Source: [Zimmermannella] faecalis ATCC 13722
Lineage (GTDB): Bacteria > Actinomycetota > Actinomycetes > Actinomycetales > Microbacteriaceae
Direction: 5' to 3'
Length of the DNA stretch: 64,000 nt
Assembly (NCBI RefSeq): GCF_000381765.1
Contig: NZ_KB907075.1
Coordinates: 278,877-342,876, forward strand
Positions 5,537 through 27,942 of this stretch are shown here, piece by piece. The notes below the pieces were generated by a model that worked only from the letters and a program-made list of their open reading frames with translations, was not told the origin of the DNA and made no database searches. Made by a program: the position numbers and the translations under genes. Numbering within the stretch: position 1 is the stretch's first letter; each line of letters begins with the position of its first letter.

Positions 5537-5541
5537 GTGCC

Positions 5542-5952: not shown

Positions 5953-5968
5953 CGGGGCGGGCACCGGG

Positions 5969-9830: not shown

Positions 9831-12029
<2,199 letters not shown>

Positions 12030-12032
12030 TCA

Positions 12033-12038
12033 ATTCTA
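12033..12038 (-). promoter_or_regulatory. candidate -10 element upstream of gyrB
   Basis: Minus-strand TAGAAT, a strong actinobacterial -10 hexamer, lies about 85 bases upstream of the gyrB start in the gap after the DUF721 gene. No clear -35 accompanies it. Gyrase promoters often respond to supercoiling; that is not visible here. Confidence 0.35.
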
Positions 12039-12105
12039 CCAAGAAGTTCACGGAAAGGCCGTTATTTGCCGTTCTCGCGGCTTTTCCCCCCAGCCCCGTG
12101 GTTCC

Positions 12106-12609
12106 CTACCCATAGGTGTCCCGAGGCCCGCGGCCCGGCACAGAACGATTTCCGTGTCGCCACGACGGCGCCCCGGGGTTAAGGAACTTGATGTCGTCGA
12201 GCTCGACCTCGGGAACGGCGGCACGGATGCGCCCAAGCAGCTCCCCACGAATCGATCGCAGCTGCGTGGCCCAGGCCGTCGAGTCGCACTGCACGAGCAG
12301 CACGCCCTCCTCGACATAGAGCGGTTTCGTGTGCGCCGCCGTGCGGGCGCCCGCGAACTCCTCCCAGCCGTCTATCACCCGCGCCTGGGCGAGCGGGGTC
12401 TGCCAATCGAACTGCGCGAACAGCTGACCAAGCACGGCGCCCGACGACTGCGGGTCGCGCTTCGGACCGAACGGCAGGTGCTCCTCGCTGTCGGGCTCTT
12501 CGGGGGTGGATGCGCCCCGCCGGCCCAGCAGCCGTCGCGAAATCTTCTGCCCGCCGAACACCTCTTTGCAGCGCATCCACACCAGCGACGACTCGCTGAA
12601 GTCAGCCAT
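12106..12609 (-). CDS. DUF721 (DciA-like) family protein
   Basis: A 167-residue protein. The conserved core is VIDGWEEFAGARTAAHTKPL followed by EEGVLLVQCDSTAWATQLR, the DUF721 pattern. DUF721 includes DciA, a replicative-helicase loading factor; in actinobacteria the gene sits between recF and gyrB as here. The ATG at 12609 overlaps the recF stop codon region by eight bases, so translation is probably coupled. The N-terminal 45 residues are basic and variable. A role in DnaB loading is inferred from the family and position. Confidence 0.85.
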   Translation of the reverse strand: MADFSESSLVWMRCKEVFGGQKISRRLLGRRGASTPEEPDSEEHLPFGPKRDPQSSGAVLGQLFAQFDWQTPLAQARVIDGWEEFAGARTAAHTKPLYVEEGVLLVQCDSTAWATQLRSIRGELLGRIRAAVPEVELDDIKFLNPGAPSWRHGNRSVPGRGPRDTYG

Positions 12610-13771: not shown

Positions 13772-13778
13772 TGTCGCG

Positions 13779-14921: not shown

Positions 14922-15100
14922 GGGCGATTCCTCCATGGCTCGGTGGGGAATCAATGCTAGCGGGTTGGTGTTGCCAGTGTCTCATCGCGCCATTTGTCGT
15001 GGCTGCGCTCGGCCGTCTCTTCGACGTCAACGGCCGGCAACCTCAATGTCACCGGCGGGCTTCTTTGGGGTAGGAAATCTGTAACCTCACTCTTAACACC

Positions 15101-15118
15101 TGTGGATGGTGTGGATAA
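15101..15118 (-). promoter_or_regulatory. inverted DnaA box pair in oriC
   Basis: TGTGGATAA at 15110-15118 is a perfect DnaA box on the minus strand. TGTGGATGG directly before it (15101-15109) is a one- to two-mismatch copy. Confidence 0.75.
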
Positions 15119-15255
15119 CTCTGTGGTGAACAGTGTTTCCCAGGGAACTACATCGGTGAAAGATGTGATTTTCACGTGGATGGAAAGTGAGCATCGTCCC
15201 CAGTTTTCGAGCAATTTGCTGGGGACTGCACAGGGTGAGTGAGATTCGGCACAGG

Positions 15256-15356
15256 TTGTCCACGTCGCGGCCGTCGCTTTCCACAAGTTATCCACAACTT
15301 GATGATTTTCCAGATTCCACGGGTTGTCCACGCGGTTGTCCACAGAGTTATCCACA
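15256..15356 (+). promoter_or_regulatory. DnaA box cluster in oriC
   Basis: Five plus-strand boxes: TTGTCCACG 15256, TTATCCACA 15288, TTGTCCACG 15324, TTGTCCACA 15336 and TTATCCACA 15348. The last three are spaced exactly 12 bases, and 15288 to 15324 is three times 12. This phased arrangement suits a DnaA filament. Confidence 0.85.
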
Positions 15357-15456
15357 GGCAGTGCAGACAACTACGCGCCCGAGGGCGATTTTGCCGTCGA
15401 GCGCGTGCGGTGTGTGGTTTTGTCGGTGGTGCCTTGTGGTGTGTGGCGTCGGGCGG

Positions 15457-17019
15457 TCAGCGTCCTGCCGGTTGGCGGATGCGCGCCGTGAGCTCGGTGA
15501 CCTGGTTGAAGACCGAGCGGTCTTCGGTCATCAGCTTCGTGATCTTTCGGTGGGCGTACATGACCGTCGTGTGGTCGCGTCCGCCGAACAGCTGGCCGAT
15601 CTTCGGCAGCGAGAGGTTCGTCATCTCGCGGCAGAGGTACATCGCAATCTGACGGCTCGTCGCGATCGCCTGTGAGCGGCTCGACCCGTAGAGGTCGTCG
15701 TTCGTCAGGTGAAAGTACTCGGCGGTCTCGCGAATGATGTCCTGCGGCGCGATGACGTTCGGCTCGTCGTTCGTGATGAGGTCTTTTAGCACCGTCGTCA
15801 CGAGACTGAGGTCGATCGCCTGCTGATTCAGGTTCGCGAACGCCGTCACGCGAATGAGCGTGCCCTCGAGCTCACGAATCGAGCTCGTGACGTGCACGGC
15901 AATGAACTCGAGCACATCGTTCGACAGCTCGAGGCGGTCGGCCTCGGCCTTCTTCCGCAGAATCGCGATGCGCGTTTCGAGGTCGGGCGACTGCACGTCG
16001 GTGATCAGGCCCCACTCGAACCGCGACCGCATGCGATCCTCAAACCCGGTGAGCTGCTTCGGGGGCACATCTGAGGTGATGACCACCTGCTTGTTGTGCT
16101 CGTGCAGCGTGTTGAAGGTGTGGAAGAAGGTCTCCATCGTCGAGTCCTTGCCCTGCAAGAACTGAATGTCATCGATGAGAAGGATGTCGTTGTTGCGGTA
16201 GCGCTGGTGGAACTCCGCCGAGCGGTTCTGCGAGATCGAGTTGATGAAGTCGTTCGTGAACTCTTCGCTCGAGACGTACCGAACCTTGATGCCCGGGTAC
16301 ATGTCCTGCGCGTAGTGGCCGATCGCGTGGAGCAGGTGCGTTTTGCCGAGCCCCGAGTCGCCATAAATAAAGAGGGGGTTGTAGGCGCGCGCCGGCGTCT
16401 CGGCCACCGCGACCGCGGCGGCGTGCGCGAAGCGGTTCGAGCCACCGATGATGAAGTTCTCGAAGATGTACTTCGGGTTGAGCCGCGAGTCACCGTTCGG
16501 GGGTGTCGCGACCGGGTCGTGATACGGCGCAACGTCGAGGCCCTGGGCCGGCTGCTGGACTGCCTGCGGGGGCGCCGCGAGCGGGTGCTCCGCAGCTGGC
16601 CGCGGCGGCGCATCCACCTGTGGATAACTGGTGGATAAGTCGGCAAATTGGTCGTCGTAGGTCGCGCCACGGTGCGCCTGCGCGACCTGATCGAGGGCGC
16701 TTTCCGGTGCGACGGCGTCGTCGTAGACGCGAACATCCGGCTCCGGGGTCGGCTCGGCATTCGGATTCACGACGATCGCGAAGTTCTTCACCTCGCCGGC
16801 AGCGGGCGTCGTCGCGATTGCGTCGAGCAGGTGCACGCGGCCGCGCTGCTCGATCTGCGAGCGGGTGAGATCGTTCGGCACCTCAAGGTAAATAGTGCCG
16901 TCCATCACGCCTTTTGCCTGCACCAGCGCGAAATATCCCCGCATCGAACCGGGCACATCGCGGTTGTTGCGGATCGCCTCAAACAGTTCTAACCAGACCG
17001 CTGACACGGCTTGCGTCAC
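15457..17019 (-). CDS. dnaA: chromosomal replication initiator DnaA
   Basis: A 520-residue AAA+ initiator. Domain I spans residues 1-85; domain II is a long Pro/Ala/Gln-rich linker to about 180. Walker A is GDSGLGKTH near 220-228, followed by the Walker [11 protein letters not shown]. The domain IV DNA-binding signature [15 protein letters not shown] is near the C-terminus. I chose the GTG at 17019 because GAGAGGAA lies just upstream; an ATG at 17070 would add 17 residues. The linker DNA itself contains two DnaA boxes (16619 and 16630). Confidence 0.97.
16619..16638 (-). promoter_or_regulatory. DnaA boxes inside the dnaA coding sequence
   Basis: On the plus strand TGTGGATAA (16619-16627) and GGTGGATAA (16630-16638), 11 bases apart, are a perfect and a one-mismatch DnaA box in minus orientation. 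They encode the STSYPQVD part of the flexible linker. Confidence 0.5.
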
Positions 17020-17142
17020 GTGTGGCTTCCTCTCGGTGGTCTGGCTGGGTGGTTTTTGGGCGCTCGGCACCGCGGTCGTGTGAAGACCCGACCGCGTAAT
17101 CTGCTCGTACCGTGCGGCTCTGCACGTCGATCGTCTCTCAAG

Positions 17143-17169
17143 CTATCCACAATTGCAAAGTTATCCACA
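17143..17169 (+). promoter_or_regulatory. DnaA boxes in the dnaA-rpmH gap
   Basis: CTATCCACA (17143-17151) and TTATCCACA (17161-17169) start 18 bases apart, about 125-150 bases upstream of the dnaA start. This suits autoregulation of dnaA. The rest of the 17020-17457 gap holds the dnaA leader and the rpmH promoter; nothing else was recognised. Confidence 0.65.
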
Positions 17170-17354
17170 GGACCTGTGGAAAAGGTTGCCCATTGTGGCC
17201 GCAAGTGACGCCGTGCGGGGCAGATACGCAACTGTAAACCACATCACGGGCACGGCGCGAACCGAGGCGCTCAGCGTTTGATCATCTCCGGCGAGTCGGG
17301 CCAGGTGAGAGCGAGAATCGTGGTAGCCCGCCAACATTCGAGCTCGCATCAACC

Positions 17355-17384
17355 TTGACCTGACCCTTGAATGTGGCGTACCCT
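17355..17384 (+). promoter_or_regulatory. rpmH promoter
   Basis: TTGACC (17355-17360) and TACCCT (17379-17384) with an 18-base spacer. The predicted start gives a leader of about 65 bases before rpmH. Confidence 0.55.
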
Positions 17385-17457
17385 GATGCAGTTATGCCCG
17401 CATCCGGGCCTTGTTTCGCTGCCCCACAGCCTCGGGCCCCGATCAGGAGATTTTCTT

Positions 17458-17595
17458 ATGTCGAAGCGTACTTTCCAGCCGAACAACCGCCGCCGCGCCA
17501 AGAAGCACGGCTTCCGCGCCCGCATGCGCACCCGCGCCGGCCGCGCCGTCATCGCCGCGCGCCGCTCGAAGGGCCGCAAGGTCCTCTCGGCGTAG
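17458..17595 (+). CDS. rpmH: 50S ribosomal protein L34
   Basis: A 45-residue, extremely basic protein, [18 protein letters not shown]..., the universal L34 pattern with KRTFQPN and [12 protein letters not shown]. It is part of the large ribosomal subunit. AGGAGA (17445-17450) precedes the ATG. The gene is divergent from dnaA and starts the conserved rpmH-rnpA-yidD-yidC-jag run. Only five bases separate it from rnpA. Confidence 0.98.
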
Positions 17596-17600
17596 TTCCC

Positions 17601-18008
17601 GTGCTCGCTCGCGCGAACCGAGTTACGAGCGGGGCCGACTACCGTCGCATCTCCCGTCGTGGCCGTCGCGCGAACGCCGCCGGTCTCGTCGCGATCGGCG
17701 AGGCGAACCGCGACTCCGCAACACCCACCCGCTTTGGTTTCATCATCACCAAGCGGGTGGGTGTTGCCGTTGTGCGGAATCGCACGAGGCGCCGGCTCAA
17801 GGCCATCACGCACGAGCTGCTGCTCCTGCTGCCGACGGGCGCGTCATTCGTGATCCGCGTTTTCCCCGAGGCTGCGTCGTTCTCCTACGAGCAACTGCGG
17901 CGCGAGACACGTCGCGCAGTGCTCGACAGCGCCGGTCGGCTCGGGATGCACACCTCGGGCGTCGAAGCCGACGACGAGTTCTGCTCGTGCTCCGACGCGA
18001 CCGGCTGA
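17601..18008 (+). CDS. rnpA: ribonuclease P protein component
   Basis: A 135-residue basic protein that assists the RNase P RNA in cutting tRNA leaders. The signature is RVGVAVVRNRTRRRLKAI, with the RNR motif, at about residues 53-70. The start is GTG at 17601, five bases after rpmH, so the two are co-transcribed and the ribosome site lies in the end of rpmH. The C-terminal 20 residues are acidic and Cys-containing (EFCSCSD), an unusual end for this family. Confidence 0.95.
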   Translation: MLARANRVTSGADYRRISRRGRRANAAGLVAIGEANRDSATPTRFGFIITKRVGVAVVRNRTRRRLKAITHELLLLLPTGASFVIRVFPEAASFSYEQLRRETRRAVLDSAGRLGMHTSGVEADDEFCSCSDATG

Positions 18009-18021
18009 TCGACGACGACCG

Positions 18022-18348
18022 ATGCTGCGTATCCTGCACACCATCACGCTCGTGCCCCGAAACCTCGGCATCGTGCTCCTCCTGCTGTACCGGCGCATCA
18101 TCTCGCCCATCTACGGCGATGTGTGTCGGTATTACCCCACCTGTTCCGCGTATGGTTTAGAAGCAGTGCAGGTGTATGGCCTGGTGCGCGGGAGCTACCT
18201 GGCGGCTCGACGGATCATGCGATGCCATCCCTGGGCGAAGCCGGACTTTGACTACGTCCCGGAGCCCAAACGTCCCTTCCCGATTCGACGGACCAAGTTG
18301 GGGTTCGTCGTGTCTGACATGCAAATGAAAGGCGAAGACGCTCGATGA
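18022..18348 (+). CDS. yidD: membrane protein insertion efficiency factor YidD
   Basis: A 108-residue member of the YidD family. It has the hallmark YRRIISPIYGDVCRYYPTCS with paired cysteines, then EAVQVYGLVRGSYLAARRI and RCHPWAKPDFDYVP. YidD aids YidC-dependent insertion at the inner membrane. The end overlaps yidC by four bases (ATGA). The C-terminus extends about 25 residues past the core. Confidence 0.95.
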   Translation: MLRILHTITLVPRNLGIVLLLLYRRIISPIYGDVCRYYPTCSAYGLEAVQVYGLVRGSYLAARRIMRCHPWAKPDFDYVPEPKRPFPIRRTKLGFVVSDMQMKGEDAR

Positions 18349-19328
18349 ACTTCTTCGACATAATTCTCTGGCCCCTGCGGTGGGTGATCGAGCTCATCCT
18401 CGTCGGCGCCCACTCGTTCTGGAGCTTCCTCGGGCTTCCCGCCGACAGCGGCTGGACCTGGGTGCTGTCGGTGCTCGTCATCGTGCTCGTCGTGCGCTCG
18501 GCGATGATTCCGCTCATGGTGCGCCAGATCAAGTCGATGCGCGGCATGATGGAGCTCCAGCCCGAACTGAAGAAGATTCAGGACAAGTACAAGGGCAAGC
18601 GCGACCAGTTCTCGCAGCAGGCGATGCAGCAAGAGACGATGGCGCTCTACAAGCGCCACGGCTCGAGCCCGCTGTCGAGCTGCTGGCCGATGCTCATCCA
18701 GATGCCGATCTTCTTCTCGCTCTACCGAGTGCTGAACGCGGCGAACCACCAGGAGGCCGGCGTCGGCCTCATGAGCCAAGACCACGCTGTGCTGCTCGCG
18801 AACTCCGAGATCTTCGGAGCCCCGCTGAGCTCGATCCTCTCGCAGGCCAACGGCAACACCAACGTCATCATCGTCGCGATCGTGCTGATCGTGCTCATGG
18901 TTGCAACGCAGTTCTTCACGCAGCGCCAGATCACCTCGCAGAACATCTCGGAGGCCGCGAAGGCGTCGCCGATGTTCCGTCAGCAGCAGATGCTCATGTA
19001 CCTGCTCCCGCTCGTCATGGCGGTCTCGGGCATCATGTTCCCGATCGGCGTGATGATCTACTGGTTCCTCACGAACGTGTGGACGACCGGTCAGCAGTGG
19101 TGGACCATCCGCAACATGCCGACCCCCGGTTCCGACGCCTACAAGAAGCGCGTTGAGCGGCTCAAGGAGCGCGGCAAGTGGGAGAACCACCCCGACAACC
19201 CGGCGAACCGCATCGTGCGTGACGGCAAGACCGCGCGCGAGCTCGAGCTCGAGGCACAGGAGAAGAAGTCGCAGCAACGTCAGCAGCCGGTGTCGAAGCA
19301 GCGACAGAAGAAGAAAAAGAAGAAGTAG
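18345..19328 (+). CDS. yidC: membrane protein insertase YidC
   Basis: A 327-residue Oxa1/YidC/Alb3 insertase of the short Gram-positive type. It has about five membrane segments: near 10-30, 38-60, 105-125, 165-190 and 215-245. The conserved core MVRQIKSMRGMMELQPELKK is the coiled cytoplasmic hairpin. It ends in a strongly basic tail (SKQRQKKKKKK) that would contact the ribosome. Translation is coupled to yidD. A terminator lies right after it. Confidence 0.96.
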   Translation: MNFFDIILWPLRWVIELILVGAHSFWSFLGLPADSGWTWVLSVLVIVLVVRSAMIPLMVRQIKSMRGMMELQPELKKIQDKYKGKRDQFSQQAMQQETMALYKRHGSSPLSSCWPMLIQMPIFFSLYRVLNAANHQEAGVGLMSQDHAVLLANSEIFGAPLSSILSQANGNTNVIIVAIVLIVLMVATQFFTQRQITSQNISEAAKASPMFRQQQMLMYLLPLVMAVSGIMFPIGVMIYWFLTNVWTTGQQWWTIRNMPTPGSDAYKKRVERLKERGKWENHPDNPANRIVRDGKTARELELEAQEKKSQQRQQPVSKQRQKKKKKK

Positions 19329-19337
19329 CTGCGGGAT

Positions 19338-19373
19338 GCGGGTGTCGGGTCGGATGACTCGGCACCCGCTTTT
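19338..19373 (+). terminator. intrinsic terminator after yidC
   Basis: Arms GCGGGTGTCG (19338-19347) and CGGCACCCGC (19360-19369), with one G-T pair, are followed by TTTT. It separates yidC from jag. Confidence 0.75.
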
Positions 19374-19440
19374 CGGTCGGGGCGAGGATGACCCGGCGCC
19401 CGGTTACCCACTAATCTGGGATGTTGAGAGAAGGAATGCA

Positions 19441-20037
19441 ATGAGCGCCAACGAGACCACTGAGCACGACCTCGTCGACGACGAGCGTGTGGAGACCGAC
19501 GCCGCCGCGACGCTGGCGACCGAGACCGAGCTTGTCGATGAGACCGACCTTGCCGACGAGTCCGACGACGATGCTGCCGACGACGGCGATCGTGACGAGG
19601 GTGACATCGCGGCCGACTACATCGAAGAGCTGCTCGATATCGCCGACATTGATGGCGACCTCGAGATCGACGTGACTGGTGGGCGCACCTACATTTCGGT
19701 GACGGCCGATGGCGAGAGCAACCTCGAGCGCATTTCGTCGCCCGAGGTGGTCGACGCACTCCAGCAGGTGACCCGTCTCGCCGTGCAGGCCGAGACCGGC
19801 GAGTTCTCACGACTCATCCTCGACATCGGTGGATCGCGGGACGCGCGCCAGCGCGAACTCGAGCAGCTCGTGGATCGGGCCGTCACTCGCATCGAAGAGG
19901 GCGCGGCCACGGCGGCGCTCCCGCCGATGTCGTCGTACGAGCGCAAGCTCGTGCACGACATTGCTGCGGCGCGTGGATACGACTCCGAGAGTGAAGGCGA
20001 GGGTCGCAAGCGCCACACGGTGCTGCGGGCGAAGTAG
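19441..20037 (+). CDS. jag: Jag/KhpB RNA-binding protein
   Basis: A 198-residue protein with an acidic low-complexity N-terminus (1-55, rich in D, E, A), a KH domain (about 60-130: ADYIEELLDIADIDGDLEID onward) and an R3H domain (about 135-195, with SSYERKLVHDIAAARGYDSE and RKRHTVLRAK). KhpB binds RNA together with KhpA and affects cell elongation in Gram-positive bacteria. The N-terminal Jag-N domain of Bacillus is replaced here by the acidic stretch. GAGAAGGA precedes the ATG. Confidence 0.93.
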   Translation: MSANETTEHDLVDDERVETDAAATLATETELVDETDLADESDDDAADDGDRDEGDIAADYIEELLDIADIDGDLEIDVTGGRTYISVTADGESNLERISSPEVVDALQQVTRLAVQAETGEFSRLILDIGGSRDARQRELEQLVDRAVTRIEEGAATAALPPMSSYERKLVHDIAAARGYDSESEGEGRKRHTVLRAK

Positions 20038-20054
20038 TCGTCGAAGTTTTTCGG

Positions 20055-20093
20055 TTCGGGCCGGACACCTTGTGGGTGTTCGGTCCGAATTTG
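20055..20093 (+). terminator. intrinsic terminator after jag
   Basis: Arms at 20055-20069 and 20074-20089 form a stem of about 15 pairs, with two G-T wobbles, around a TTGT loop, followed by TTTGTT. It insulates the parS array from jag transcription. Confidence 0.8.
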
Positions 20094-20406
20094 TTCCCGT
20101 TGGTCGCGAGATCGATTAATGTCGATGTAGGTTGCTAGCGTCGCTGATCTGGATTGTGACGATGCGATCAATGTGGTTGGTGTCGTAATGGTGAGCCCGA
20201 CTTCGGCTTGCTGATGCGGATCTCAGCCGGTTGGGTGCGACGTGCAGCGAGTTGACGTATACCGACACTCATGTAATTACGTTGGTGGAGTTTCAGCCAA
20301 CTCGGTTTTATGCGTCAAATTGGCCAATATGTCGCCACGTGGTCGTTGGCGAGGTCACGGTGATGTGTCACGTGGATCTGAGGCGTTGCCACGGAAGTGT
20401 GCGCGC

Positions 20407-20420
20407 GTTTCACGTGAAAC
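20407..20420. promoter_or_regulatory. parS: parS site 1 (perfect)
   Basis: GTTTCACGTGAAAC, flanked by C and G, giving a 16-base palindrome. First site of the array, 152 bases before site 2. Confidence 0.95.
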
Positions 20421-20558
20421 GAAGGCTACGGAAGTAGGTGGATGGGCGGTCGACTTGCTCCACTCATTGCTGCTTTGCCACGTATTCAACAATGTGAACC
20501 GACGGAGAGTTCGACGTTGGTTGTCGAGCTTGATGCCGTTGTCAATGCAGCTGAACCC

Positions 20559-20572
20559 GTTCCACGTGAAAC
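20559..20572. promoter_or_regulatory. parS: parS site 2 (one mismatch)
   Basis: GTTCCACGTGAAAC. This is the exact mirror of the GTTTCACGTGGAAC variant seen at sites 3, 6 and 11. Confidence 0.85.
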
Positions 20573-20690
20573 ATTGGGTGCTGAGTTTGGCCGGGTTGCT
20601 GTTGCTACGACTCACTCGCTATGAATGAAGGTCGAGACTCTTGCTTCGTGCATGGCGAGAATGGTGCGTTTCTCGGCTGCATCGGGGACT

Positions 20691-20704
20691 GTTTCACGTG
20701 GAAC
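20691..20704. promoter_or_regulatory. parS: parS site 3 (one mismatch)
   Basis: GTTTCACGTGGAAC, A to G at position 11. The following spacer shares GTGAGTCGCGGAGTC with the spacer after site 7. Confidence 0.85.
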
Positions 20705-20823
20705 GACTCGAGGAACGCCAGTGGCGACGCGTCGTTCTCACCAACCATTCGCCGTGATTGTGAGTCGCGGAGTCGACTTTGTGGAATGCGCTAGTGGAGG
20801 GTTCTCCACGCTTCATTGGGCCG

Positions 20824-20837
20824 GTTTCGCGTGAAAC
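20824..20837. promoter_or_regulatory. parS: parS site 4 (one mismatch)
   Basis: GTTTCGCGTGAAAC. Followed by GAGTCGAG and GCAGAGACGT, like the units of sites 6 and 8. Confidence 0.85.
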
Positions 20838-20974
20838 GAGTCGAGAGGAGCTTTGCAGAGACGTGTCGCTGTCATTAATCGGTTCGCACGAACTGGTGAG
20901 CTCCACTGCTATCGGGAACCGCTGTTCGTGTGTTTAGGACGGTAGCTCCGTGGAGAGGGTTTTGCGTACACCGG

Positions 20975-20988
20975 GTTTCACGTGAAAC
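20975..20988. promoter_or_regulatory. parS: parS site 5 (perfect)
   Basis: GTTTCACGTGAAAC followed by GCGGC, the second unit type of the dimeric repeat. Confidence 0.95.
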
Positions 20989-21099
20989 GCGGCACACGGA
21001 ATTCGGCAGAGATGGTGTTCTCTCCATCTACTCGTAATGGATGTCAGTCACGGGGCGAGCATCGTCGGAGTGGTGCGTTCTTCTCTTTGATCCGGATTG

Positions 21100-21113
21100 G
21101 TTTCACGTGGAAC
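21100..21113. promoter_or_regulatory. parS: parS site 6 (one mismatch)
   Basis: GTTTCACGTGGAAC followed by GAGACGAG, first unit type of the dimeric repeat. Confidence 0.85.
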
Positions 21114-21248
21114 GAGACGAGCGGTGGCCAGTAGAGACGTCTCCTCCTCACCGACTCATCGCAATGATCGTGTGAGTCTCTTTGATGTTGGGTATTGCTG
21201 TTCGGCGGTGTGCCGGCAACTCCATGGCGGACTTGTTGCGTGCTTTTC

Positions 21249-21262
21249 GTTTCACGTGAAAC
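21249..21262. promoter_or_regulatory. parS: parS site 7 (perfect)
   Basis: GTTTCACGTGAAAC followed by GCGGCCAACGGGATTC, close to the context of site 5. Confidence 0.95.
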
Positions 21263-21380
21263 GCGGCCAACGGGATTCCGTAGGAGCGTAGTGCTCGACT
21301 TCTAGTCGCGATGGTTGTGAGTCGCGGAGTCTGCTGCCTGGATTGTGAGAGCCGGGTGTTCTCCAGCCTCAAGCGGGTTG

Positions 21381-21394
21381 GTTACACGTGGAAC
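21381..21394. promoter_or_regulatory. parS: parS site 8 (two mismatches)
   Basis: GTTACACGTGGAAC, the most diverged site counted. Its context (GAGTCGAGACGAG, then GCAGAGACTTCTCGC) matches sites 4 and 6. Confidence 0.65.
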
Positions 21395-21532
21395 GAGTCG
21401 AGACGAGGTCTGCAGAGACTTCTCGCTCTCACCAGCCTGTGATTATGAACGTCCTGGCGTGATTGCGGCAGGGAATTACTCTCATAGGCAGGATGCCTCC
21501 AGGTCCCTGCGAAACACGGTTGGGGATCTCGT

Positions 21533-21546
21533 GTTTCACGTGAAAC
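21533..21546. promoter_or_regulatory. parS: parS site 9 (perfect)
   Basis: GTTTCACGTGAAAC followed by GCAGCCGCCGG, second unit type. Confidence 0.95.
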
Positions 21547-21682
21547 GCAGCCGCCGGCGACCGGTAGAAGTGTCGTTCTCGTCACCTAGACGCAATTTGA
21601 CTGTGGGCCCCACTGCTGCCGGCCATTGAGCTTCAGGAGATGCCTTTATACAAGCTCGTGAGGCACTCGTTGTGGCCGTCCC

Positions 21683-21696
21683 GTTTCACGTGAAAC
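21683..21696. promoter_or_regulatory. parS: parS site 10 (perfect)
   Basis: GTTTCACGTGAAAC, 150 bases after site 9, with a spacer unlike its neighbours. Confidence 0.95.
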
Positions 21697-21841
21697 GAAG
21701 CCACTGAAGCTACGCAAACGCATGGTTCTTGGCTCATTGGCTCCAGTCGGATGAGCCCCTCACCCTTGGGAGGTGGGTCGGGTGGGTCGGTGCGCGAACC
21801 TGATTCCGAGAGTCTCGACCTCGCTCGCGATCCGCGGCGGT

Positions 21842-21855
21842 GTTTCACGTGGAAC
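21842..21855. promoter_or_regulatory. parS: parS site 11 (one mismatch)
   Basis: GTTTCACGTGGAAC, same variant as sites 3 and 6. Confidence 0.85.
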
Positions 21856-21993
21856 CGGGCCACAAGTAGTTCACCTACCGTCAGACATGCTCTACGTCAG
21901 TGAGCAGCCTTCCGTTGTCCCCACGATCGTTCGCTGCTCGTGTGAGGAGAATGCCCTTCACAGCCACATCCTCAAGTTTGGCGAGATGGATGT

Positions 21994-22007
21994 GTTCCAC
22001 GTGAAAC
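21994..22007. promoter_or_regulatory. parS: parS site 12 (one mismatch)
   Basis: GTTCCACGTGAAAC. First site of the roughly 151-base tandem block; GGTTCAGTTGGGTG precedes the next site. Confidence 0.85.
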
Positions 22008-22144
22008 CGAGCGAATCACGTTCGGCCGACTATCTATTGCGCGGTGCCCCATCGAGAGGTGCGCGAGGGTCAGGTGAGCGTGGGCAGCTTGTCTGCGCAT
22101 GCCGGGACCTACGTGCGTCTGGTTCAGTTGGGTGACTTGGATGT

Positions 22145-22158
22145 GTTTCACGTGAAAC
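22145..22158. promoter_or_regulatory. parS: parS site 13 (perfect)
   Basis: GTTTCACGTGAAAC followed by TGAGGCAAGCAGTGGC, shared with sites 15 and 16. Confidence 0.95.
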
Positions 22159-22296
22159 TGAGGCAAGCAGTGGCGACAGACATCTTGCGGCACTGTGTCC
22201 ACACGAGAGCAGGGAGAGGAGCACGCCAGCGTGACGTGACGGTCTGTGTACGCTGCACCTCCGTGCGCCCCTGGTTCGGTTGAACGTGGTGGATGT

Positions 22297-22310
22297 GTTT
22301 CACGTGAAAT
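22297..22310. promoter_or_regulatory. parS: parS site 14 (one mismatch)
   Basis: GTTTCACGTGAAAT; the change is in the last base. Confidence 0.85.
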
Positions 22311-22447
22311 CGAGTCAACCAGGGATGTCGGACAACTTGCGGCACTGCGCCCAAGCGAGAGTTGGGCGAGGAGCACACCAGTGTGACGTGACGGCTTCCG
22401 TTCGATGGCATCCGTGCGCCCCTGGTTCGGTTGGGCGAGGTGGATGT

Positions 22448-22461
22448 GTTTCACGTGAAAC
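22448..22461. promoter_or_regulatory. parS: parS site 15 (perfect)
   Basis: GTTTCACGTGAAAC followed by CGAGGCAAGCAGTGGC. Confidence 0.95.
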
Positions 22462-22598
22462 CGAGGCAAGCAGTGGCCATAGAGATTCTGCGGCACTGCG
22501 TCCAAGCGAGAGTTGGGCGCGTACCACGTCAACGTGACCTGACGGTTTGCGGTGGTTGACATCCGCGCGCCCCTGGTTCGGTTCGGCGAGGTGGTCAC

Positions 22599-22612
22599 GT
22601 TTCACGTGAAAC
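22599..22612. promoter_or_regulatory. parS: parS site 16 (perfect)
   Basis: GTTTCACGTGAAAC followed by AGGGGCAAGCAGTGGC, exactly 151 bases after site 15. Confidence 0.95.
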
Positions 22613-22748
22613 AGGGGCAAGCAGTGGCGCTAGACAACTTGCGGCACTCTCCCAAGCGAGAGTTGAGCGAGTGGCGCGTCGGCGTGACGCGACGGCTTGC
22701 GTTCGTTGGCGTCCGTGCGCCCCTGGTTCAGTTGAGCGAGGCGGTCAC

Positions 22749-22762
22749 GATTCACGTGAAAC
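22749..22762. promoter_or_regulatory. parS: parS site 17 (one mismatch)
   Basis: GATTCACGTGAAAC followed by CGAGGCAACCAGG, as after site 14. Confidence 0.85.
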
Positions 22763-22896
22763 CGAGGCAACCAGGATCTGCAGACATCTCGCAGCTGTGC
22801 GATCCAGGGGCGGTTCAATGAGTGCCAGGTCAGAGTGAGGCGGGGCTGCGCGTGTCGGGAGTCGCCCTCCCCGGGCAATCTGATTGACACGGTGGC

Positions 22897-22910
22897 GTTT
22901 CACGTGAAAC
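22897..22910. promoter_or_regulatory. parS: parS site 18 (perfect)
   Basis: GTTTCACGTGAAAC; spacer no longer resembles the tandem block, yet the 148-base distance is kept. Confidence 0.95.
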
Positions 22911-23049
22911 GGGCCTTTGTCATCTGCGGGCGTGACGTCTTGCCACGTGAGTCGGTCACGCTTTCTGAGTCCCTCATGAGCGAGAGAGGTGACCGTCCTC
23001 GTCAGCCCGGCGCCGCGAGTACCGTGCAGTGGGGAATGACGCTGCACGT

Positions 23050-23063
23050 GTTTCATGTGAAAC
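23050..23063. promoter_or_regulatory. parS: parS site 19 (one mismatch)
   Basis: GTTTCATGTGAAAC; the change falls in the central CACGTG. Confidence 0.8.
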
Positions 23064-23199
23064 GCGGCTTAACGGGTAGGGAGGCGCAGTACGTCACTGC
23101 GTCAGCTACTGCGGTGGCCATGACCTTCACTGTTGGCAAGTGATGTTGTTTCTCGGGATGGCATTTCGGGCTCCCCGCTCTCTGGTTGGCAGTCACAGC

Positions 23200-23213
23200 G
23201 TTTCACGTGAAAC
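23200..23213. promoter_or_regulatory. parS: parS site 20 (perfect, extended palindrome)
   Basis: GTTTCACGTGAAAC within a perfect 22-base palindrome, 23196-23217, flanks CAGC and GCTG. It is the most symmetric site of the array. Confidence 0.95.
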
Positions 23214-23434
23214 GCTGCCTGGTTAGGAGTCATGCAAGCGCCGCAGGTAGGCACTGCAAGCATGTGCACGCGCGGTGGAGTACGCGAGTGCTTATCCGTA
23301 TGCAATGACCGGCATTGCATTGGTCGTTGATTTCGCGCCGCACTCCGATCCGTCCGGACTGGCGAACCCCACTTCCCACGTTCCCCACGGAAGTTCGACG
23401 GGGCGCCAAGTACTGGTCTCCGAGCGCCGGGGCC

Positions 23435-23448
23435 GTTTCAGGTGAAAC
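23435..23448. promoter_or_regulatory. parS: parS site 21 (one mismatch)
   Basis: GTTTCAGGTGAAAC; the centre is CAGGTG. Spacing changes here from about 150 to about 230 bases. Confidence 0.7.
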
Positions 23449-23657
23449 GACGTCAGATGCCGCTATGCGCGGCCGACCGGAACCGACTACTTCGACGGTG
23501 GCTCCTCCCTGCTCAGCTCCATGGAGCGTGAAGTCGACGGCAGCGATCCACCTGCGGGCAGATTGATCGTTGGCGATGGGGCGGGTCGAGCAAGCGGTCA
23601 TCCTCCGGAGCGCAATGGCGACGCGGAGGCGAGATTGTGGCATCCCATACGAGCACC

Positions 23658-23671
23658 GTTTCACGTGAAAC
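23658..23671. promoter_or_regulatory. parS: parS site 22 (perfect)
   Basis: GTTTCACGTGAAAC flanked by C and G. Confidence 0.95.
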
Positions 23672-23893
23672 GGCGTGAATGTGCCGATCGGCGACGGCAA
23701 CCAACCCTGGTTAGTGCATCAGATGAATTGACGAGCGCACGCACTCGCGACGCTAGCTTGAGTGAACGCAACCGCGTACGAAAAACGATGTTGACCAGGA
23801 CTTTAATCATATGAAAGCCGAAAGCAGCGGTCCGCAGCTCCCTCCGCTCCTCGACACGACCTCACCGCGCTCTCAACGGCACCCCGACCCCAC

Positions 23894-23907
23894 GTTTCAC
23901 GTGAAAC
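23894..23907. promoter_or_regulatory. parS: parS site 23 (perfect, in the rsmG leader)
   Basis: GTTTCACGTGAAAC, ending 28 bases before the rsmG ATG. ParB bound here could affect rsmG-parAB expression. Confidence 0.95.
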
Positions 23908-23935
23908 AATTGCAAAGAAGGAAAGGACTTCGAGG

Positions 23936-24616
23936 ATGAGTGGACCCACGGCAATGCCGGATCCAGTGACGAGCGTCGATCTTGGCGAGGAAACCGTCGA
24001 GGTGGAACCGCGCCCAGCGGTCGCCGAACAGATCTTTGGTGACCGGCTACCGCTCGCGCAGGCGTACGCAAACGCCCTCGCGACCGACGGCGAGACCCTC
24101 GGCCTGCTCGGCCCCCTCGAGTATCCCCGCCTCTGGACGCGCCATGTCGTGAACTCGGCGCTCATCGCCCCGCTGCTGAACGGCAACGTAGGCGACGTCG
24201 GCTCTGGTGCCGGCCTTCCGGGCATCCCGCTCGCAATCGCCCGCCCCGACGTGCAGTTCACACTCATCGAGCCGATGGAGCGACGACACACCTGGCTCAC
24301 CGAACAGGTCGCCGCCCTCGGGCTCGAGAACGTCACGCCTCTGCGCGCCCGCGCCGAAGACCTCGCCGATACGCACACGTTCGACCAGGTCACCGCTCGC
24401 GCCGTCGCCGCGCTGAGCAAGCTCATCCCGATCACTGCCCCCCTCGTTCGCTACGAGGGCGAGCTCGTGCTGCTCAAGGGACGCTCGGCTGAGGCGGAGA
24501 TCCAGAAGGCGGCAAAGGTGATCCGCAAGTTCCAACTCACCGACATCCGCGTCGAAGAGGTCGGCCTCGACCTCGACACCGAATCGACCCGCGTCGTGCG
24601 GGCAACCGTCGCGTAG
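23936..24616 (+). CDS. rsmG: 16S rRNA (guanine-N7)-methyltransferase RsmG
   Basis: A 226-residue SAM-dependent methyltransferase (GidB) that modifies 16S rRNA in the 530 loop. The SAM motif DVGSGAGLPGIPLAIA is at 87-102. Other family motifs are WTRHVVNSALIAPL, ARAEDL and VTARAVAALSKL. The N-terminal 25 residues are an acidic, lineage-specific extension. AAAGGA lies nine bases before the ATG. The leader includes the last parS site. It heads the rsmG-parA-parB run found in most bacteria. Confidence 0.96.
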   Translation: MSGPTAMPDPVTSVDLGEETVEVEPRPAVAEQIFGDRLPLAQAYANALATDGETLGLLGPLEYPRLWTRHVVNSALIAPLLNGNVGDVGSGAGLPGIPLAIARPDVQFTLIEPMERRHTWLTEQVAALGLENVTPLRARAEDLADTHTFDQVTARAVAALSKLIPITAPLVRYEGELVLLKGRSAEAEIQKAAKVIRKFQLTDIRVEEVGLDLDTESTRVVRATVA

Positions 24617-24621
24617 GCGAG

Positions 24622-24630
24622 TTATCCACA
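24622..24630 (+). promoter_or_regulatory. single DnaA box before parA
   Basis: TTATCCACA, a perfect DnaA box four bases after the rsmG stop and 102 bases before the parA start. It could link parAB expression to DnaA, but a single box is weak evidence. Confidence 0.45.
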
Positions 24631-24731
24631 ACTCCGACGGGCCTCCCTGCTCATGTCGGGACCGTGGGCGACAATAGATCGTCCGAGACCGCTCCGTTCG
24701 GTTGAAGCAATGGCGAAGGGACCACACCTCT

Positions 24732-25622
24732 ATGAGCGATGCGTTCGACTCACCGATCGCGCGGCAGATTGCCGCACTGAACGCGAAGAAGCGCGCACTC
24801 AAGACGGTCTCCACGCCAAAGCCCGAATCGACCCGAGTCTTCACGGTCTCGAACCAGAAGGGTGGCGTTGGGAAGACGACGACTACGGTGAACATCGCGG
24901 CGGCCCTCGCGCAGGCCGGCCTGCGCGTGCTCGTGATCGACATCGATCCGCAGGGCAACGCATCGACAGCGCTAAATATTGATCGATATGGTGACGCAAC
25001 GGGCACGTACGAGGTGCTCATCGACGGCGTCCCCCTCGCCGACGTCGTGCAGGACTCGCCCGACATTAAGGGCCTGTCATGCTGCCCCGCGACGCTCAAC
25101 CTCGCCGGCGCTGAGATCGAGCTCGTCGACGTACCGAACCGCGAGACGCGACTGCGCGCATCCCTCACCGAATACCTCGAGGAGCGCGAACGAGCCGGCG
25201 ACCGCTACGACTACGTCTTCATCGACTGCCCACCCTCGCTCGGCCTGCTCACCATGAACGCCTTCGCTGCGGCGAAAGAGGTGCTCATCCCGATTCAGGG
25301 TGAGTATTACGCCCTCGAGGGCCTCAGCCAGCTGCTTAACTCGATTAACCGCCTGCGCGAGTACCTCAACCCGCACCTCACGGTCAGCGCGATCCTCATG
25401 ACGATGTTCGACCGTCGCACCAACCTCTCGCGCGAGGTCGCCGACGAGGTTCGCGAGCACTTCCCACAGCAGACCCTCACGACCGTCATCCCACGGTCGG
25501 TGCGCATCTCTGAGGCCCCGAGCTACAGCCAAACCATCATCACCTACGACCCCGAGGGCAGCGGCGCGGTGGCCTACCGCGAGGCGGCCAACGAGCTCGC
25601 AAATCAAGGAGCGAAACGCTAA
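24732..25622 (+). CDS. parA: chromosome partitioning ATPase ParA
   Basis: A 296-residue MinD/ParA ATPase. The deviant Walker A KGGVGKTTT is at 43-51, followed by VIDIDPQGNAST (Walker A') and FIDCPPSLGLLT (Walker B). ATP-bound ParA dimers coat the nucleoid and pull ParB-parS complexes. The 35-residue N-terminal extension before the fold is basic. I chose the ATG at 24732 with GAAGGGA upstream; a TTG at 24702 would add ten residues. The stop overlaps the parB start by one base. Confidence 0.96.
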   Translation: MSDAFDSPIARQIAALNAKKRALKTVSTPKPESTRVFTVSNQKGGVGKTTTTVNIAAALAQAGLRVLVIDIDPQGNASTALNIDRYGDATGTYEVLIDGVPLADVVQDSPDIKGLSCCPATLNLAGAEIELVDVPNRETRLRASLTEYLEERERAGDRYDYVFIDCPPSLGLLTMNAFAAAKEVLIPIQGEYYALEGLSQLLNSINRLREYLNPHLTVSAILMTMFDRRTNLSREVADEVREHFPQQTLTTVIPRSVRISEAPSYSQTIITYDPEGSGAVAYREAANELANQGAKR

Positions 25623-26890
25623 TGGCACAGAAGAAGCGCAGTGGCCTGGGCCGCGGCCTCAGCGCACTGATCCCCTCGGGCACGACCACCGAAGATCGAG
25701 ACATCGACGTCTTCTTCAACGGCTCGGCGCCCTCCGGTCGGCAGGCAGCCGGCGTCGCGACTGCAGAGGCACCGGCTGAAGTCGAGGCAGTCGAGGTTGA
25801 GACTATCGAAACCCAGACTCCCGAGACCCAAGCCGACGAGCCCGCAGCCCCCGCAAAGAAGCAGACGAAGCCAACTGCGGCGAAGAGCACTCGCACGACC
25901 TCGAAGTCGCGCAGCACATCGAAGTCGAACGATGTGGAACCTGCTGCATCGACTGCGGACGATGCAGTGAGCGATGCATCGACCAACATCGATGTGGCGA
26001 CCGAGGAAGCCACCGAGGACACCGCCGAACCCGAGCTGCTGCCCGTGCCGGGCGCGACGCTCCGCACGCTCGACCCCTCGCGTATCGTGCCGAACGCTCG
26101 GCAGCCGCGGCACGAATTCGACCAGGACGCGCTCGACGAGCTCATCATCTCGGTGCGCGAATTCGGCGTGCTCCAGCCGATCGTGGTGCGTCCGCTGCCC
26201 GCCGGCGACCCGCGCGCGGTGGACGGCGACTTCGAGCTCATCATGGGCGAGCGCCGCCTGCGCGCGACGAAGGCGGCCCGGCGCGACGAGATCCCCGCGA
26301 TCGTGCGCGAGACCGAAGACGAAGACATGCTGCGCGACGCGCTGCTCGAGAACCTTCACCGCGCCGAGCTCAACCCGCTCGAGGAGGCCTCGGCCTACCG
26401 CCAGCTGCTCGACGACTTCGGCTGCACGCAAGACGAGCTCGCCGAGCGCATCGGCCGCTCGCGCCCGCGCATCTCAAACACGCTGCGCCTGCTCAACCTG
26501 CCGGTCGACGTGCAGCGCCGCGTCGCGGCAGGAGTGCTGAGCGCCGGCCACGCCCGCGCGGTGCTCTCGGTGGGGGAGCCCGCCGCCATGACGCAGCTCG
26601 CCGACAAGATCGTGAACGAGGGCCTCTCGGTGCGCGAGTCGGAGACCGCGGCCGCGACCCTCGCGACCCGTGCCGGCCGCGCCGAGCGCCCGACCCGCAA
26701 GGATGCGCCGGCCGGCTCCGACTCGCTCGCGGCGCACCTCGAAGAGGTCGGGGAACGCCTCGGCGACCGCCTCAACACGCGCGTCAAGGTGGTGCTGCGC
26801 AAGACGAAGGGCACGATCACAATCGACTTCGCGTCGATGGCCGACCTGACGCGCATCCTCGAGGACCTCGGCGAGGACGAGGCCGAGTAG
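25622..26890 (+). CDS. parB: chromosome partitioning protein ParB (parS-binding CTPase)
   Basis: A 422-residue CTP-dependent DNA clamp. Residues 1-18 hold the ParA-interacting motif GLGRGLSALIP. Residues 20-145 are a long disordered linker rich in A, E, T and K. The CTPase domain follows (LDPSRIVPNARQPR near 150, GERRLRA at 209-215, ENLHRAELNP at 243-252), then a helix-turn-helix (about 265-295) and the C-terminal dimer domain. The linker is much longer than the usual 20-50 residues. The massive parS array lies just upstream, so this protein is its reader. Confidence 0.96.
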   Translation: MAQKKRSGLGRGLSALIPSGTTTEDRDIDVFFNGSAPSGRQAAGVATAEAPAEVEAVEVETIETQTPETQADEPAAPAKKQTKPTAAKSTRTTSKSRSTSKSNDVEPAASTADDAVSDASTNIDVATEEATEDTAEPELLPVPGATLRTLDPSRIVPNARQPRHEFDQDALDELIISVREFGVLQPIVVRPLPAGDPRAVDGDFELIMGERRLRATKAARRDEIPAIVRETEDEDMLRDALLENLHRAELNPLEEASAYRQLLDDFGCTQDELAERIGRSRPRISNTLRLLNLPVDVQRRVAAGVLSAGHARAVLSVGEPAAMTQLADKIVNEGLSVRESETAAATLATRAGRAERPTRKDAPAGSDSLAAHLEEVGERLGDRLNTRVKVVLRKTKGTITIDFASMADLTRILEDLGEDEAE

Positions 26891-26918
26891 CGCCGGCGGA
26901 GTAAAAGCGCGAGTAGGC

Positions 26919-27911
26919 CTACGCCTCGGCGACCGTCTCGACGCTCGTGCGCGCCCCGCGGTTCGCGGCGTGCGTCGCGAGCTTCGCGTATACCTCGGGC
27001 ACCTCGAGCCCGGCGGCCTCGAGCGCCAACGGCACGAGCGAGGTCTCGGTCATGCCGGGAATCGGGTCGGCCTCGAGGAACCAGGGCGTGCCGTCCTCGT
27101 CAACGATGAAGTCGATGCGCGCGAGGTCGGCGAGGCCGATCGCCTCGTACGCGAGCAGCGCCTGCTCGGCGACCCGCTCGGCGACGTCTTCGGCGAGGCG
27201 GGCGGGCGCGTAGAACGTCGTCTCGCCCGCGTTGTAGCGCGCCGCGTAGTCATAGACGCCACCGCGAGGCTCCACCTCGACGGCGGGCACCGTGAAGGGG
27301 CCGTCGCCGTGGTCGAGCACGCCGACGGTCACCTCGGTGCCGATGACGCGCTTCTCGATGAGCACCGAGTCGCCGTAGGTGAATGCGGTGACGAGCGCGC
27401 GCCCGAACTCCGAGATGTCGTTCACGAACGACACGCCCTGGGCCGAGCCGCCCTCGGTGGGCTTCACGACGGCCGGGAAGTCCACCCCAAGCGCGATCGC
27501 CTGAATGACGCTCGTCGCCCCGAGCTCACGGAACGTCTCGTTCGGCAGCACGATCGACTGCGGCGTCGTGAGCCCGGCGCGCTTCGCGATAGCCTTCGCG
27601 GTCGCCTTGTTCCAGGCGAGCTTCGCGGCGGTCGGGCGGGCGCCGACGTAGGGCAGCCCCACGGCGCGCAGCAGCGAGTAGAGCGCGCCGTTCTCACCCG
27701 AGGCGCCGTGCAGCAGGGGCCAGACGACGTCTATGTCTTCGCGGTGCTCGAGCAGCCACGGCAGCAGCTGCTGGTCGGGCTCGCGCACCGTGACGTTCGC
27801 GCCGGCGCGGGTGAGCGCATCCGCCACCCGTCGGCCCGAGCGCAGCGAAACGTCGCGTTCGTGCGAGATTCCGCCCGAGAGAATCACGACGTGTTGTCCC
27901 TGAATGGTCAT
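26919..27911 (-). CDS. ddl: D-alanine--D-alanine ligase
   Basis: A 330-residue ATP-grasp enzyme that joins two D-alanines for peptidoglycan. Visible motifs are HVVILSGGISHERDVSLRSG at the N-terminus, WPLLHGASGENGALYSLLR, VVKPTEGGSAQGVSFV (glycine-rich ATP loop) and ARIDFIVDEDGTPWFLEADP with the metal ligands. I chose the ATG at 27911 because AAGGAG lies upstream; a frame from 28007 would add 32 unconserved residues overlapping the upstream gene. It converges with parB, 28 bases apart. It is 31 bases downstream of the aminotransferase, probably one transcript. Confidence 0.9.
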   Translation of the reverse strand: MTIQGQHVVILSGGISHERDVSLRSGRRVADALTRAGANVTVREPDQQLLPWLLEHREDIDVVWPLLHGASGENGALYSLLRAVGLPYVGARPTAAKLAWNKATAKAIAKRAGLTTPQSIVLPNETFRELGATSVIQAIALGVDFPAVVKPTEGGSAQGVSFVNDISEFGRALVTAFTYGDSVLIEKRVIGTEVTVGVLDHGDGPFTVPAVEVEPRGGVYDYAARYNAGETTFYAPARLAEDVAERVAEQALLAYEAIGLADLARIDFIVDEDGTPWFLEADPIPGMTETSLVPLALEAAGLEVPEVYAKLATHAANRGARTSVETVAEA

Positions 27912-27942
27912 CCGGATGCTCCTTGCCGGTTCGAGCGAATGG

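What the first reader, a model, noticed from the sequence alone, without database searches (positions are those of the whole stretch)
20407..23907. Giant, compact parS centromere: at least 23 ParB sites in 3.5 kb next to parAB
Seen directly: 23 copies of the ParB target, 12 perfect, in a stretch with no believable gene, 29 bases before rsmG-parA-parB. From general knowledge, most chromosomes have 1-10 dispersed parS sites, and Streptomyces has about 20 spread over hundreds of kilobases. Myxococcus xanthus, as I recall, has a comparable clustered array, so dense arrays are not without precedent. In an actinobacterium of this type a single block resembling a plasmid centromere is unusual. It should load very many ParB clamps in one place and act as a strong origin anchor and SMC loading site.
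Basis: partly seen in the sequence, partly recalled or inferred. Interest (0 to 1): 0.95.

Follow-up and report, generated by a model that had tools for sequence, protein, structure and literature searches.

The report
Tandem-array chromosome centromere with fast-changing spacers
A bacterium carries 23 copies of the known landing motif of the chromosome-sorting protein ParB in 3.5 kilobases beside the rsmG, ParA and ParB genes; the block likely acts as one compact centromere, and between the two closest relatives compared the motif is kept while nearly all the DNA between copies no longer aligns.

Summary
Window 20407-23907 holds 23 parS sites (12 perfect, 10 with one mismatch, 1 with two), 28 bases before rsmG-parA-parB. 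The genome has no other site at up to one mismatch and 3 at two. Nineteen of 22 gaps are 125-159 bases; four neighbouring spacers are 75-79% alike.

Many sites in one block is not new: Myxococcus xanthus has 22 parS in 3 kb near parA (PMC3899335). It is also a trait of this genus: all 11 genomes have 9-22 sites, with a cluster beside rsmG, on either side of it.

New here is its satellite-like evolution. Between the two closest relatives 168 of 4079 spacer bases align; six other intergenic stretches are 88-95% identical, the adjacent leader 74%. The 14-base sites stay: 31 of 57 mismatches fall on one base, where M. xanthus has C. An Oscillospiraceae genome has a separate array of 56 sites.

Likely function: one compact ParB loading platform and SMC entry point. 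ParB binding was not tested.

The parts
20407..23907 (.). parS array: 23 sites, 3.5 kb, mean gap 158, median 151
20407..20420 (.). parS site 1, perfect
20559..20572 (.). parS site 2, one mismatch (T4C)
20691..20704 (.). parS site 3, one mismatch (T4C on the other strand)
20824..20837 (.). parS site 4, one mismatch (A6G)
20975..20988 (.). parS site 5, perfect
21100..21113 (.). parS site 6, one mismatch (T4C on the other strand)
21249..21262 (.). parS site 7, perfect
21381..21394 (.). parS site 8, two mismatches, both at half-site position 4
21533..21546 (.). parS site 9, perfect
21683..21696 (.). parS site 10, perfect
21842..21855 (.). parS site 11, one mismatch (T4C on the other strand)
21994..22007 (.). 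parS site 12, one mismatch (T4C)
22145..22158 (.). parS site 13, perfect
22297..22310 (.). parS site 14, one mismatch
22448..22461 (.). parS site 15, perfect
22599..22612 (.). parS site 16, perfect
22749..22762 (.). parS site 17, one mismatch
22897..22910 (.). parS site 18, perfect
23050..23063 (.). parS site 19, one mismatch
23200..23213 (.). parS site 20, perfect
23435..23448 (.). parS site 21, one mismatch
23658..23671 (.). parS site 22, perfect
23894..23907 (.). parS site 23, perfect; the rsmG-proximal anchor site. A site followed by AAT at this place is also in G007, G006, G001, G010, G008 and G004
22145..22748 (.). four tandem units of about 151 bp, spacers 75-79% identical: recent tandem duplication
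20691..20974 (.). two-spacer block partly homologous to 21249-21532 (offset 558 bp, four units): older duplication
21249..21532 (.). second copy of that older duplication
23936..24616 (+). rsmG, 16S rRNA methyltransferase
   Evidence: TIGR00138 over its cut-off
24702..25622 (+). parA, deviant Walker ATPase (KGGVGKT); an ATG at 24732 is the likelier start
25622..26890 (+). parB, with the parS-type reading residues
19441..20037 (+). jag-like gene with R3H domain, the other flank of the array (gene name recalled)
14955..15456 (.). dnaN-dnaA gap with three DnaA-box matches, likely oriC

Best explanation
The block is the only parS cluster found in this genome, 23 copies of the ParB target motif about every 150 bases beside rsmG-parA-parB, and it likely works as one compact chromosomal centromere on which ParB would load. 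Predicted steps, from other bacteria: ParB bound to CTP closes as a clamp at many neighbouring parS copies, slides into the DNA around them, bridges and condenses it; ParA pulls this body to the new cell half; SMC enters at this one place 5 kb from the origin. What the sequence shows: four neighbouring units are tandem duplicates and an older duplication is visible; between relatives the 14-base sites are present while most spacers no longer align. Inferred: the rest of the array also arose by tandem duplication, and selection acts on the number and quality of sites in the block and not on the spacers, so the array behaves like a small satellite DNA with a protein box in each unit.
For: Sole cluster. 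Next to rsmG-parA-parB, about 5 kb from the dnaN-dnaA gap. ParB reads parS and not the Noc site: in the alignment to Caulobacter ParB (6t1f) the residues at 173, 179, 184 and 201 are R, T, N, G; R173 and G201 are stated to be conserved in all extant ParB orthologues and Noc has Q, K, K, R (PMC7383237, passages). Of the six other parS-contacting residues named there, five are kept and K171 is R. SMC gene at 838 bits. Selection on the sites: in the four recent units the parS window has 3 pairwise mismatches against a mean of 19.7 over 139 windows (it and its one-base neighbour are lowest); across 152 genus sites 31 of 57 mismatches fall at half-site position 4 (P = 1.6e-12 if independent), where the M. 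xanthus consensus has C. Turnover: 11 of 231 spacer pairs homologous inside the array; 3 between-species hits in the 11 genomes (120 of 140 spacers, those of 40-420 bp, counts of spacers); with sites masked 168 of 4079 bases align between G007 and G006, against 2264 of 2310 for the adjacent gene block. Why many sites could matter: in vitro, under an applied force, condensation appeared only from 5-7 parS and its force grew with copy number (PMC8299390, passages); clustered sites are argued to lessen SMC collisions (PMC8357415, passages).
Against: No binding data: every functional step is borrowed. One parS suffices in C. glutamicum, so most copies could be dispensable. Relatives run from 9 to 22 sites at up to one mismatch, so no fixed number is needed. 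11 of 23 copies are imperfect. The regular period is not shared across the genus: in 4 of 10 genomes tested (G001, G010, G003, G004) gaps are not significantly more even than random. No half-decayed sites were found at the double-length gaps of G007, so loss of sites is not shown. Sites related by duplication are not independent, so the P value is too small. The neutral rate for spacers is uncertain: the non-coding leader beside the array is only 68-74% identical between G006 and G007, and without masking some array stretches match at 58-68%, short ones up to 75%; the excess divergence of spacers is clear but its size is not.
Confidence: 0.82

Rival explanations
1. Redundant by-product: one or a few sites do all the work, and the rest are passively made by tandem duplication and not yet lost.
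For: A single parS is enough in C. glutamicum (PMC7083940, passages). Tandem units are visible. Copy number differs freely between relatives.
Against: Sites stay near-perfect where spacers mostly no longer align, and over half of the mismatches fall on one base that varies between known parS. Passive copies would decay with the spacers.
Confidence: 0.12
2. Spacing is the function: parS about every 150 bases sets a regular ParB-DNA fold, such as a fixed loop or helix.
For: Gap variation in G000, G006 and G007 is below all 5000 random placements. The M. xanthus cluster averages about 145 bases per site (arithmetic). The Oscillospiraceae array has about 119.
Against: The period differs: 151 in G000, 170 in G007, 120 and 143 in parts of G003, 55 in a Bacilli MAG; 4 of 10 genus genomes tested show no significant evenness. 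Tandem duplication explains a period without selection on it.
Confidence: 0.1
3. The array mainly controls the rsmG-parA-parB operon, with ParB bound upstream repressing it.
For: The last site is 28 bases before rsmG, and that site with its AAT flank is kept in seven of the eight genomes whose array lies upstream of rsmG (G003 lacks it).
Against: One site would be enough for that; a simple consensus scan found no sigma-70-like promoter there; in G002, G005 and G009 the array lies behind rsmG.
Confidence: 0.05
4. The block came from a plasmid or phage centromere.
For: The architecture resembles plasmid centromeres with tandem sites (F plasmid sopC, recalled).
Against: No match in 72,556 plasmid or 50,697 phage records. 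The motif is the chromosomal parS. Other genera of the family have parS clusters in the same slot beside rsmG.
Confidence: 0.01

Closest known systems
Myxococcus xanthus parS cluster (PMC3899335, section 5 read; PMC3778016, passages)
   Same: 22 parS in a 3-kb cluster (24 in the other paper) upstream of parAB near the origin; a gel-shift assay with ParB and the 3.12-kb cluster is described (passage cut off). Nearly the same count and density.
   Different: Different phylum; cluster about 4 kb from parA; consensus GTTCCACGTGGAAC. Whether its spacing is regular or its spacers turn over was not in what I read, and I did not recognise the genome in my scan.
Corynebacterium glutamicum parS (PMC7083940, passages)
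   Same: Actinobacterium, ParABS with SMC, several redundant origin-near sites.
   Different: 10 sites over 35 kb, 73 kb from oriC, nine intergenic and one in a gene; one is enough.
Oscillospiraceae MAG array (locus L212)
   Same: parS in tandem units (about 119 bp) upstream of parA-parB, sites almost invariant, spacers diverged.
   Different: 56 sites, other phylum; 40 relatives drawn from its genus have only 0-4 exact sites. Found here; I made no literature search aimed at it.
F plasmid sopC (recalled, not looked up)
   Same: Tandem array with one ParB-type site per unit.
   Different: Plasmid, other site and other ParB; shorter units.
Alpha-satellite DNA with CENP-B boxes (recalled)
   Same: Repeat units turn over quickly while a short protein-binding box is kept.
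   Different: Eukaryotic centromere, vastly larger, no ParABS.

Membership tests
chromosomal ParABS centromere (parS) | 16-bp parS palindrome, core GTTTCACGTGAAAC | tested here: met
   12 perfect, 10 with one and 1 with two mismatches; 0 of 100 shuffles as rich
chromosomal ParABS centromere (parS) | clustered near oriC | tested here: met
   5 kb from the dnaN-dnaA gap with three DnaA-box matches; sole cluster
chromosomal ParABS centromere (parS) | cognate parA and parB | tested here: met
   rsmG-parA-parB directly downstream
chromosomal ParABS centromere (parS) | ParB with parS-type specificity residues (R173, G201) | tested here: met
   R, T, N, G aligned to Caulobacter 173/179/184/201 (residues)
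chromosomal ParABS centromere (parS) | ParB binds and spreads there in vivo | not testable with these tools
   needs ChIP-seq
Noc/NBS nucleoid occlusion | Q173, K179, K184, R201; score over the Noc cut-off | tested here: not met
   none of the four residues; 201 bits against a cut-off of 315
dense parS cluster of the Myxococcus kind | about 20 or more parS in about 3 kb, close to parAB | tested here: met
   23 in 3.5 kb against 22 in 3 kb
tandem-repeat (satellite-like) centromere | head-to-tail units, one box each | tested here: met
   TRF period 151, 4.3 copies; 11 of 231 spacer pairs homologous. Shown for part of the array; the other spacers have no detectable homology to each other
tandem-repeat (satellite-like) centromere | units more alike inside a genome than between genomes | tested here: met
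   18 within-genome homologous pairs (in 4 of 11 genomes) against 3 between-genome hits
tandem-repeat (satellite-like) centromere | copy-number change within a species | not testable with these tools
   one genome per species is held
plasmid centromere | lies on a plasmid or resembles one | tested here: not met
   chromosomal context; no plasmid or phage match

The most novel reading that the evidence does not exclude
This is a bacterial satellite centromere: a tandem array made and remade by duplication, in which only the ParB box is kept by selection and everything between is replaced faster than any neighbouring DNA. It is the bacterial counterpart of the centromere paradox, has switched between the two sides of rsmG at least twice, and has arisen independently elsewhere (56 units in an Oscillospiraceae genome, ten 55-bp units in a Bacilli genome).
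Probability: 0.45. Interest if true: 0.8.

Novelty: new variant of a known kind. Interest (0 to 1): 0.6.

Why it matters
It offers a natural copy-number series of centromere arrays (9 to 22 sites at up to one mismatch in one genus, 56 in another lineage) with a known class of binding protein. That makes two open questions directly testable: why a cell keeps tens of parS when one can suffice, and whether bacterial centromere DNA evolves like eukaryotic satellites, fast in sequence but constant in the protein box.

Tried and rejected
Period as a conserved feature: rejected, since unit length differs by species and 4 of 10 genus genomes tested show no significant evenness (G008, with 5 fetched sites, was left out). 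Decayed sites in the middle of the two 340-bp gaps of G007: none (best 6 and 7 mismatches, inside the null). Orthology of seven consecutive sites between G006 and G007, suggested by a global alignment: rejected, their spacers score no better than non-orthologous ones except the rsmG-proximal one. A second motif in the spacers: none that clearly beats shuffles (a few 7-mers score slightly above five null runs, no 8-mer clearly does). Half-parS sites: GTTTCAC not enriched (4 against 3.6), GTTCCAC 8 against 4.2, equal to the largest shuffle; DnaA boxes 4 against 0.8 (largest shuffle 3), none of them in this window's array. RNA families: none in 14000-28000. Plasmid or phage origin: no match. Measuring the M. 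xanthus cluster directly: 188 genomes of the phylum of a Polyangiaceae record were scanned for exact GTTCCACGTGGAAC only, largest count 12, spread over about 90 kb; the species was not recognised. Naming the organism: not possible; Microbacterium records match genus g85 of the same family at 76-84% DNA identity, so Microbacteriaceae is likely.
Full report
WHAT IS THERE. The window holds 23 parS sites at 20407-23907: 12 perfect, 10 with one mismatch and 1 with two. The gaps are 152, 132, 133, 151, 125, 149, 132, 152, 150, 159, 152, 151, 152, 151, 151, 150, 148, 153, 150, 235, 223 and 236. The genome (2.85 Mb, 17 contigs) has 22 sites at up to one mismatch, all in this block, and 3 two-mismatch sites elsewhere. 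Gene order is dnaN-dnaA (minus), rnpA, yidC, jag (R3H domain), array, rsmG, parA, parB. Longest open frame in the block: 209 codons, reached by 36 of 60 shuffles. No Rfam family and no plasmid or phage match.

HOW IT AROSE. Tandem Repeats Finder sees a 151-bp period at 22119-22774, 4.3 copies. Of 231 spacer pairs in the array 11 are homologous: six among the four units at 22145-22748 (75-79% identical), two from an older four-unit duplication (20691-20974 with 21249-21532, offset 558), and three weaker links to the unit before the four. The other spacers share no detectable homology, yet most keep about the same length. Gap variation (CV 0.19) is below all 5000 random placements; the same holds for G006 and G007. 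Of the seven other genus genomes tested, G009, G005 and G002 are more even than most placements (11, 37 and 151 of 5000), while G004, G001, G003 and G010 are not significantly so (468 to 1406 of 5000).

WHO ELSE HAS IT. All 11 genomes of the genus have 9 to 22 sites at up to one mismatch. In the fetched stretches the numbers found of the genome totals were: G000 22/22, G007 17/17, G006 16/16, G001 12/12, G010 9/9, G002 13/13, G004 10/10, G003 12/13 (one on another contig), G005 17/18, G009 10/14 and G008 5/11; for the last three the places of the rest were not listed, and the stretch or contig ends near the array. In 7 of 11 the array lies between jag and rsmG; in G008 it lies upstream of rsmG where the contig ends; in G002, G005 and G009 it lies behind rsmG, before parA in the two where parA was in the stretch. 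In genus g73 G313 has the first layout and G144 and G279 the second (parA of G279 was outside the stretch). On a tree of eight genes (28 of 32 stretches, four incomplete or duplicate ones dropped; one branch inside the genus weakly supported, 0.27) this needs at least two switches. Of 12 relatives outside the genus looked at, 9 carry one parS in the short gap between jag and rsmG, a possible seed. In 398 genomes of the family most have 2-6 exact sites; 18 have 9 or more, 8 of them in this genus (my reading of the list). I took 31 genomes for closer study, the genus plus mostly the richest others.

SITES KEPT, SPACERS NOT. Spacers of 40-420 bp (120 of 140) were compared all against all in the 11 genomes: 18 homologous pairs within genomes (G000 11, G007 4, G003 2, G006 1), 3 hits between genomes. 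For the closest pair of the genus, G007 and G006, coding DNA is 91.5% and fourfold sites are 74.8% identical. Six intergenic stretches are 88-95% identical; some contain small genes or oriC. The non-coding leader between jag and the first site is 74% (68% by local alignment). With parS masked, 168 of 4079 array bases align, against 2264 of 2310 for the parA-parB block; for four other pairs no array base aligns. Without masking, longer matches at 58-68% appear between G007 and G006, several in more than one register, which is what a shared repeat family would give. In the four recent units the parS window is the most conserved of 139 windows, tied with its neighbour (3 against a mean of 19.7 pairwise mismatches). 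Of 57 mismatches in 152 genus sites, 31 fall at half-site position 4, 29 of them T to C: the form of the M. xanthus consensus.

THE PROTEIN. The local ParB aligns with Caulobacter ParB and carries R, T, N, G at the four reading positions, against Q, K, K, R in Noc (PMC7383237, passages). It is below the Noc family cut-off. An SMC gene is present.

HOW IT LIKELY WORKS (inferred). ParB-CTP clamps would load at many neighbouring sites and slide out. Passages of PMC8299390 report that condensation in vitro, under the force applied, needed 5-7 parS and that its force rose with copy number; arrays of 9-23 are above that threshold. Passages of PMC8357415 argue that scattered parS are counterproductive for avoiding SMC collisions. 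PMC7083940 (passages) suggests that many sites add robustness, and also shows that one can suffice. Against the single-cluster idea, passages of PMC10387095 suggest that separated parS could favour SMC loading.

WHAT IS KNOWN. M. xanthus: 22 parS in 3 kb, 4 kb upstream of parA (PMC3899335, section 5 read whole); 24 parS upstream of parAB (PMC3778016, passages). So a dense chromosomal cluster is a known kind. No held paper has both 'parS sites' and Microbacteriaceae, and I saw none on spacer turnover in parS arrays in the listings; Livny 2007 was not read.

CONVERGENT ARRAYS. Among the 118 stretches, an Oscillospiraceae MAG contig (fetched whole as L212) has 60 sites, 56 of them about 119 bp apart up to the contig end, upstream of parA-parB, with rsmG 4 kb further. 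Its 56 array sites differ at 3 of 784 bases while spacer columns are mostly 40-80% conserved. A Bacilli MAG (L214) has ten sites exactly 55 bp apart about 3 kb from gyrB-recF-dnaN-dnaA. Binning errors in MAGs cannot be excluded.

VERDICT. A multi-site chromosomal centromere by the sequence tests made here, of a kind known from M. xanthus, in a new variant: tandem, genus-wide, switching sides of rsmG, with kept boxes and fast-changing spacers.

Noticed in passing
L212 (G399:C43, CANRFA010000043.1), 8352-17261: Oscillospiraceae MAG with 60 parS sites, 56 of them in a tandem array of about 119 bp that runs to the contig end upstream of parA-parB; 77 exact sites in the genome against 0-4 in 40 relatives drawn from its genus.
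   Followed up: partly
L213 (G399:C47), 5202-6029: A second cluster of seven parS in the same MAG, four of six gaps 104-109 bp.
   Followed up: no
L214 (Bacilli MAG CANRCZ010000003.1), 9386-9894: Ten parS sites exactly 55 bp apart, about 3 kb from gyrB-recF-dnaN-dnaA.
   Followed up: partly
G974, G775, G901 (family f26 of the phylum): 135, 114 and 110 exact parS sites per genome; in the listed part of G775 they are scattered over the chromosome, some as pairs 34-48 bp apart. The opposite extreme to this array.
   Followed up: partly
genus g6 (G015, G097, G159, G209, G253): Small genomes (1.3-1.9 Mb) with 9-20 exact parS, only 3 exact ones in each fetched stretch around rsmG; the rest were not located.
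   Followed up: no
window 24622-24630: A DnaA-box match in the rsmG-parA gap; TTATCCACA stretches lie in the same gap of G001.
   Followed up: no
L174 (G004), jag-rsmG gap: A 440-codon open frame longer than in any of 60 shuffles, possibly a real gene beside the array.
   Followed up: no
gap between jag and rsmG in G114, G134, G098, G386, G221, G015, G097, G159, G263: One parS sits in the short jag-rsmG gap in these 9 of 12 relatives looked at outside the genus, a possible seed of the jag-rsmG arrays.
   Followed up: partly
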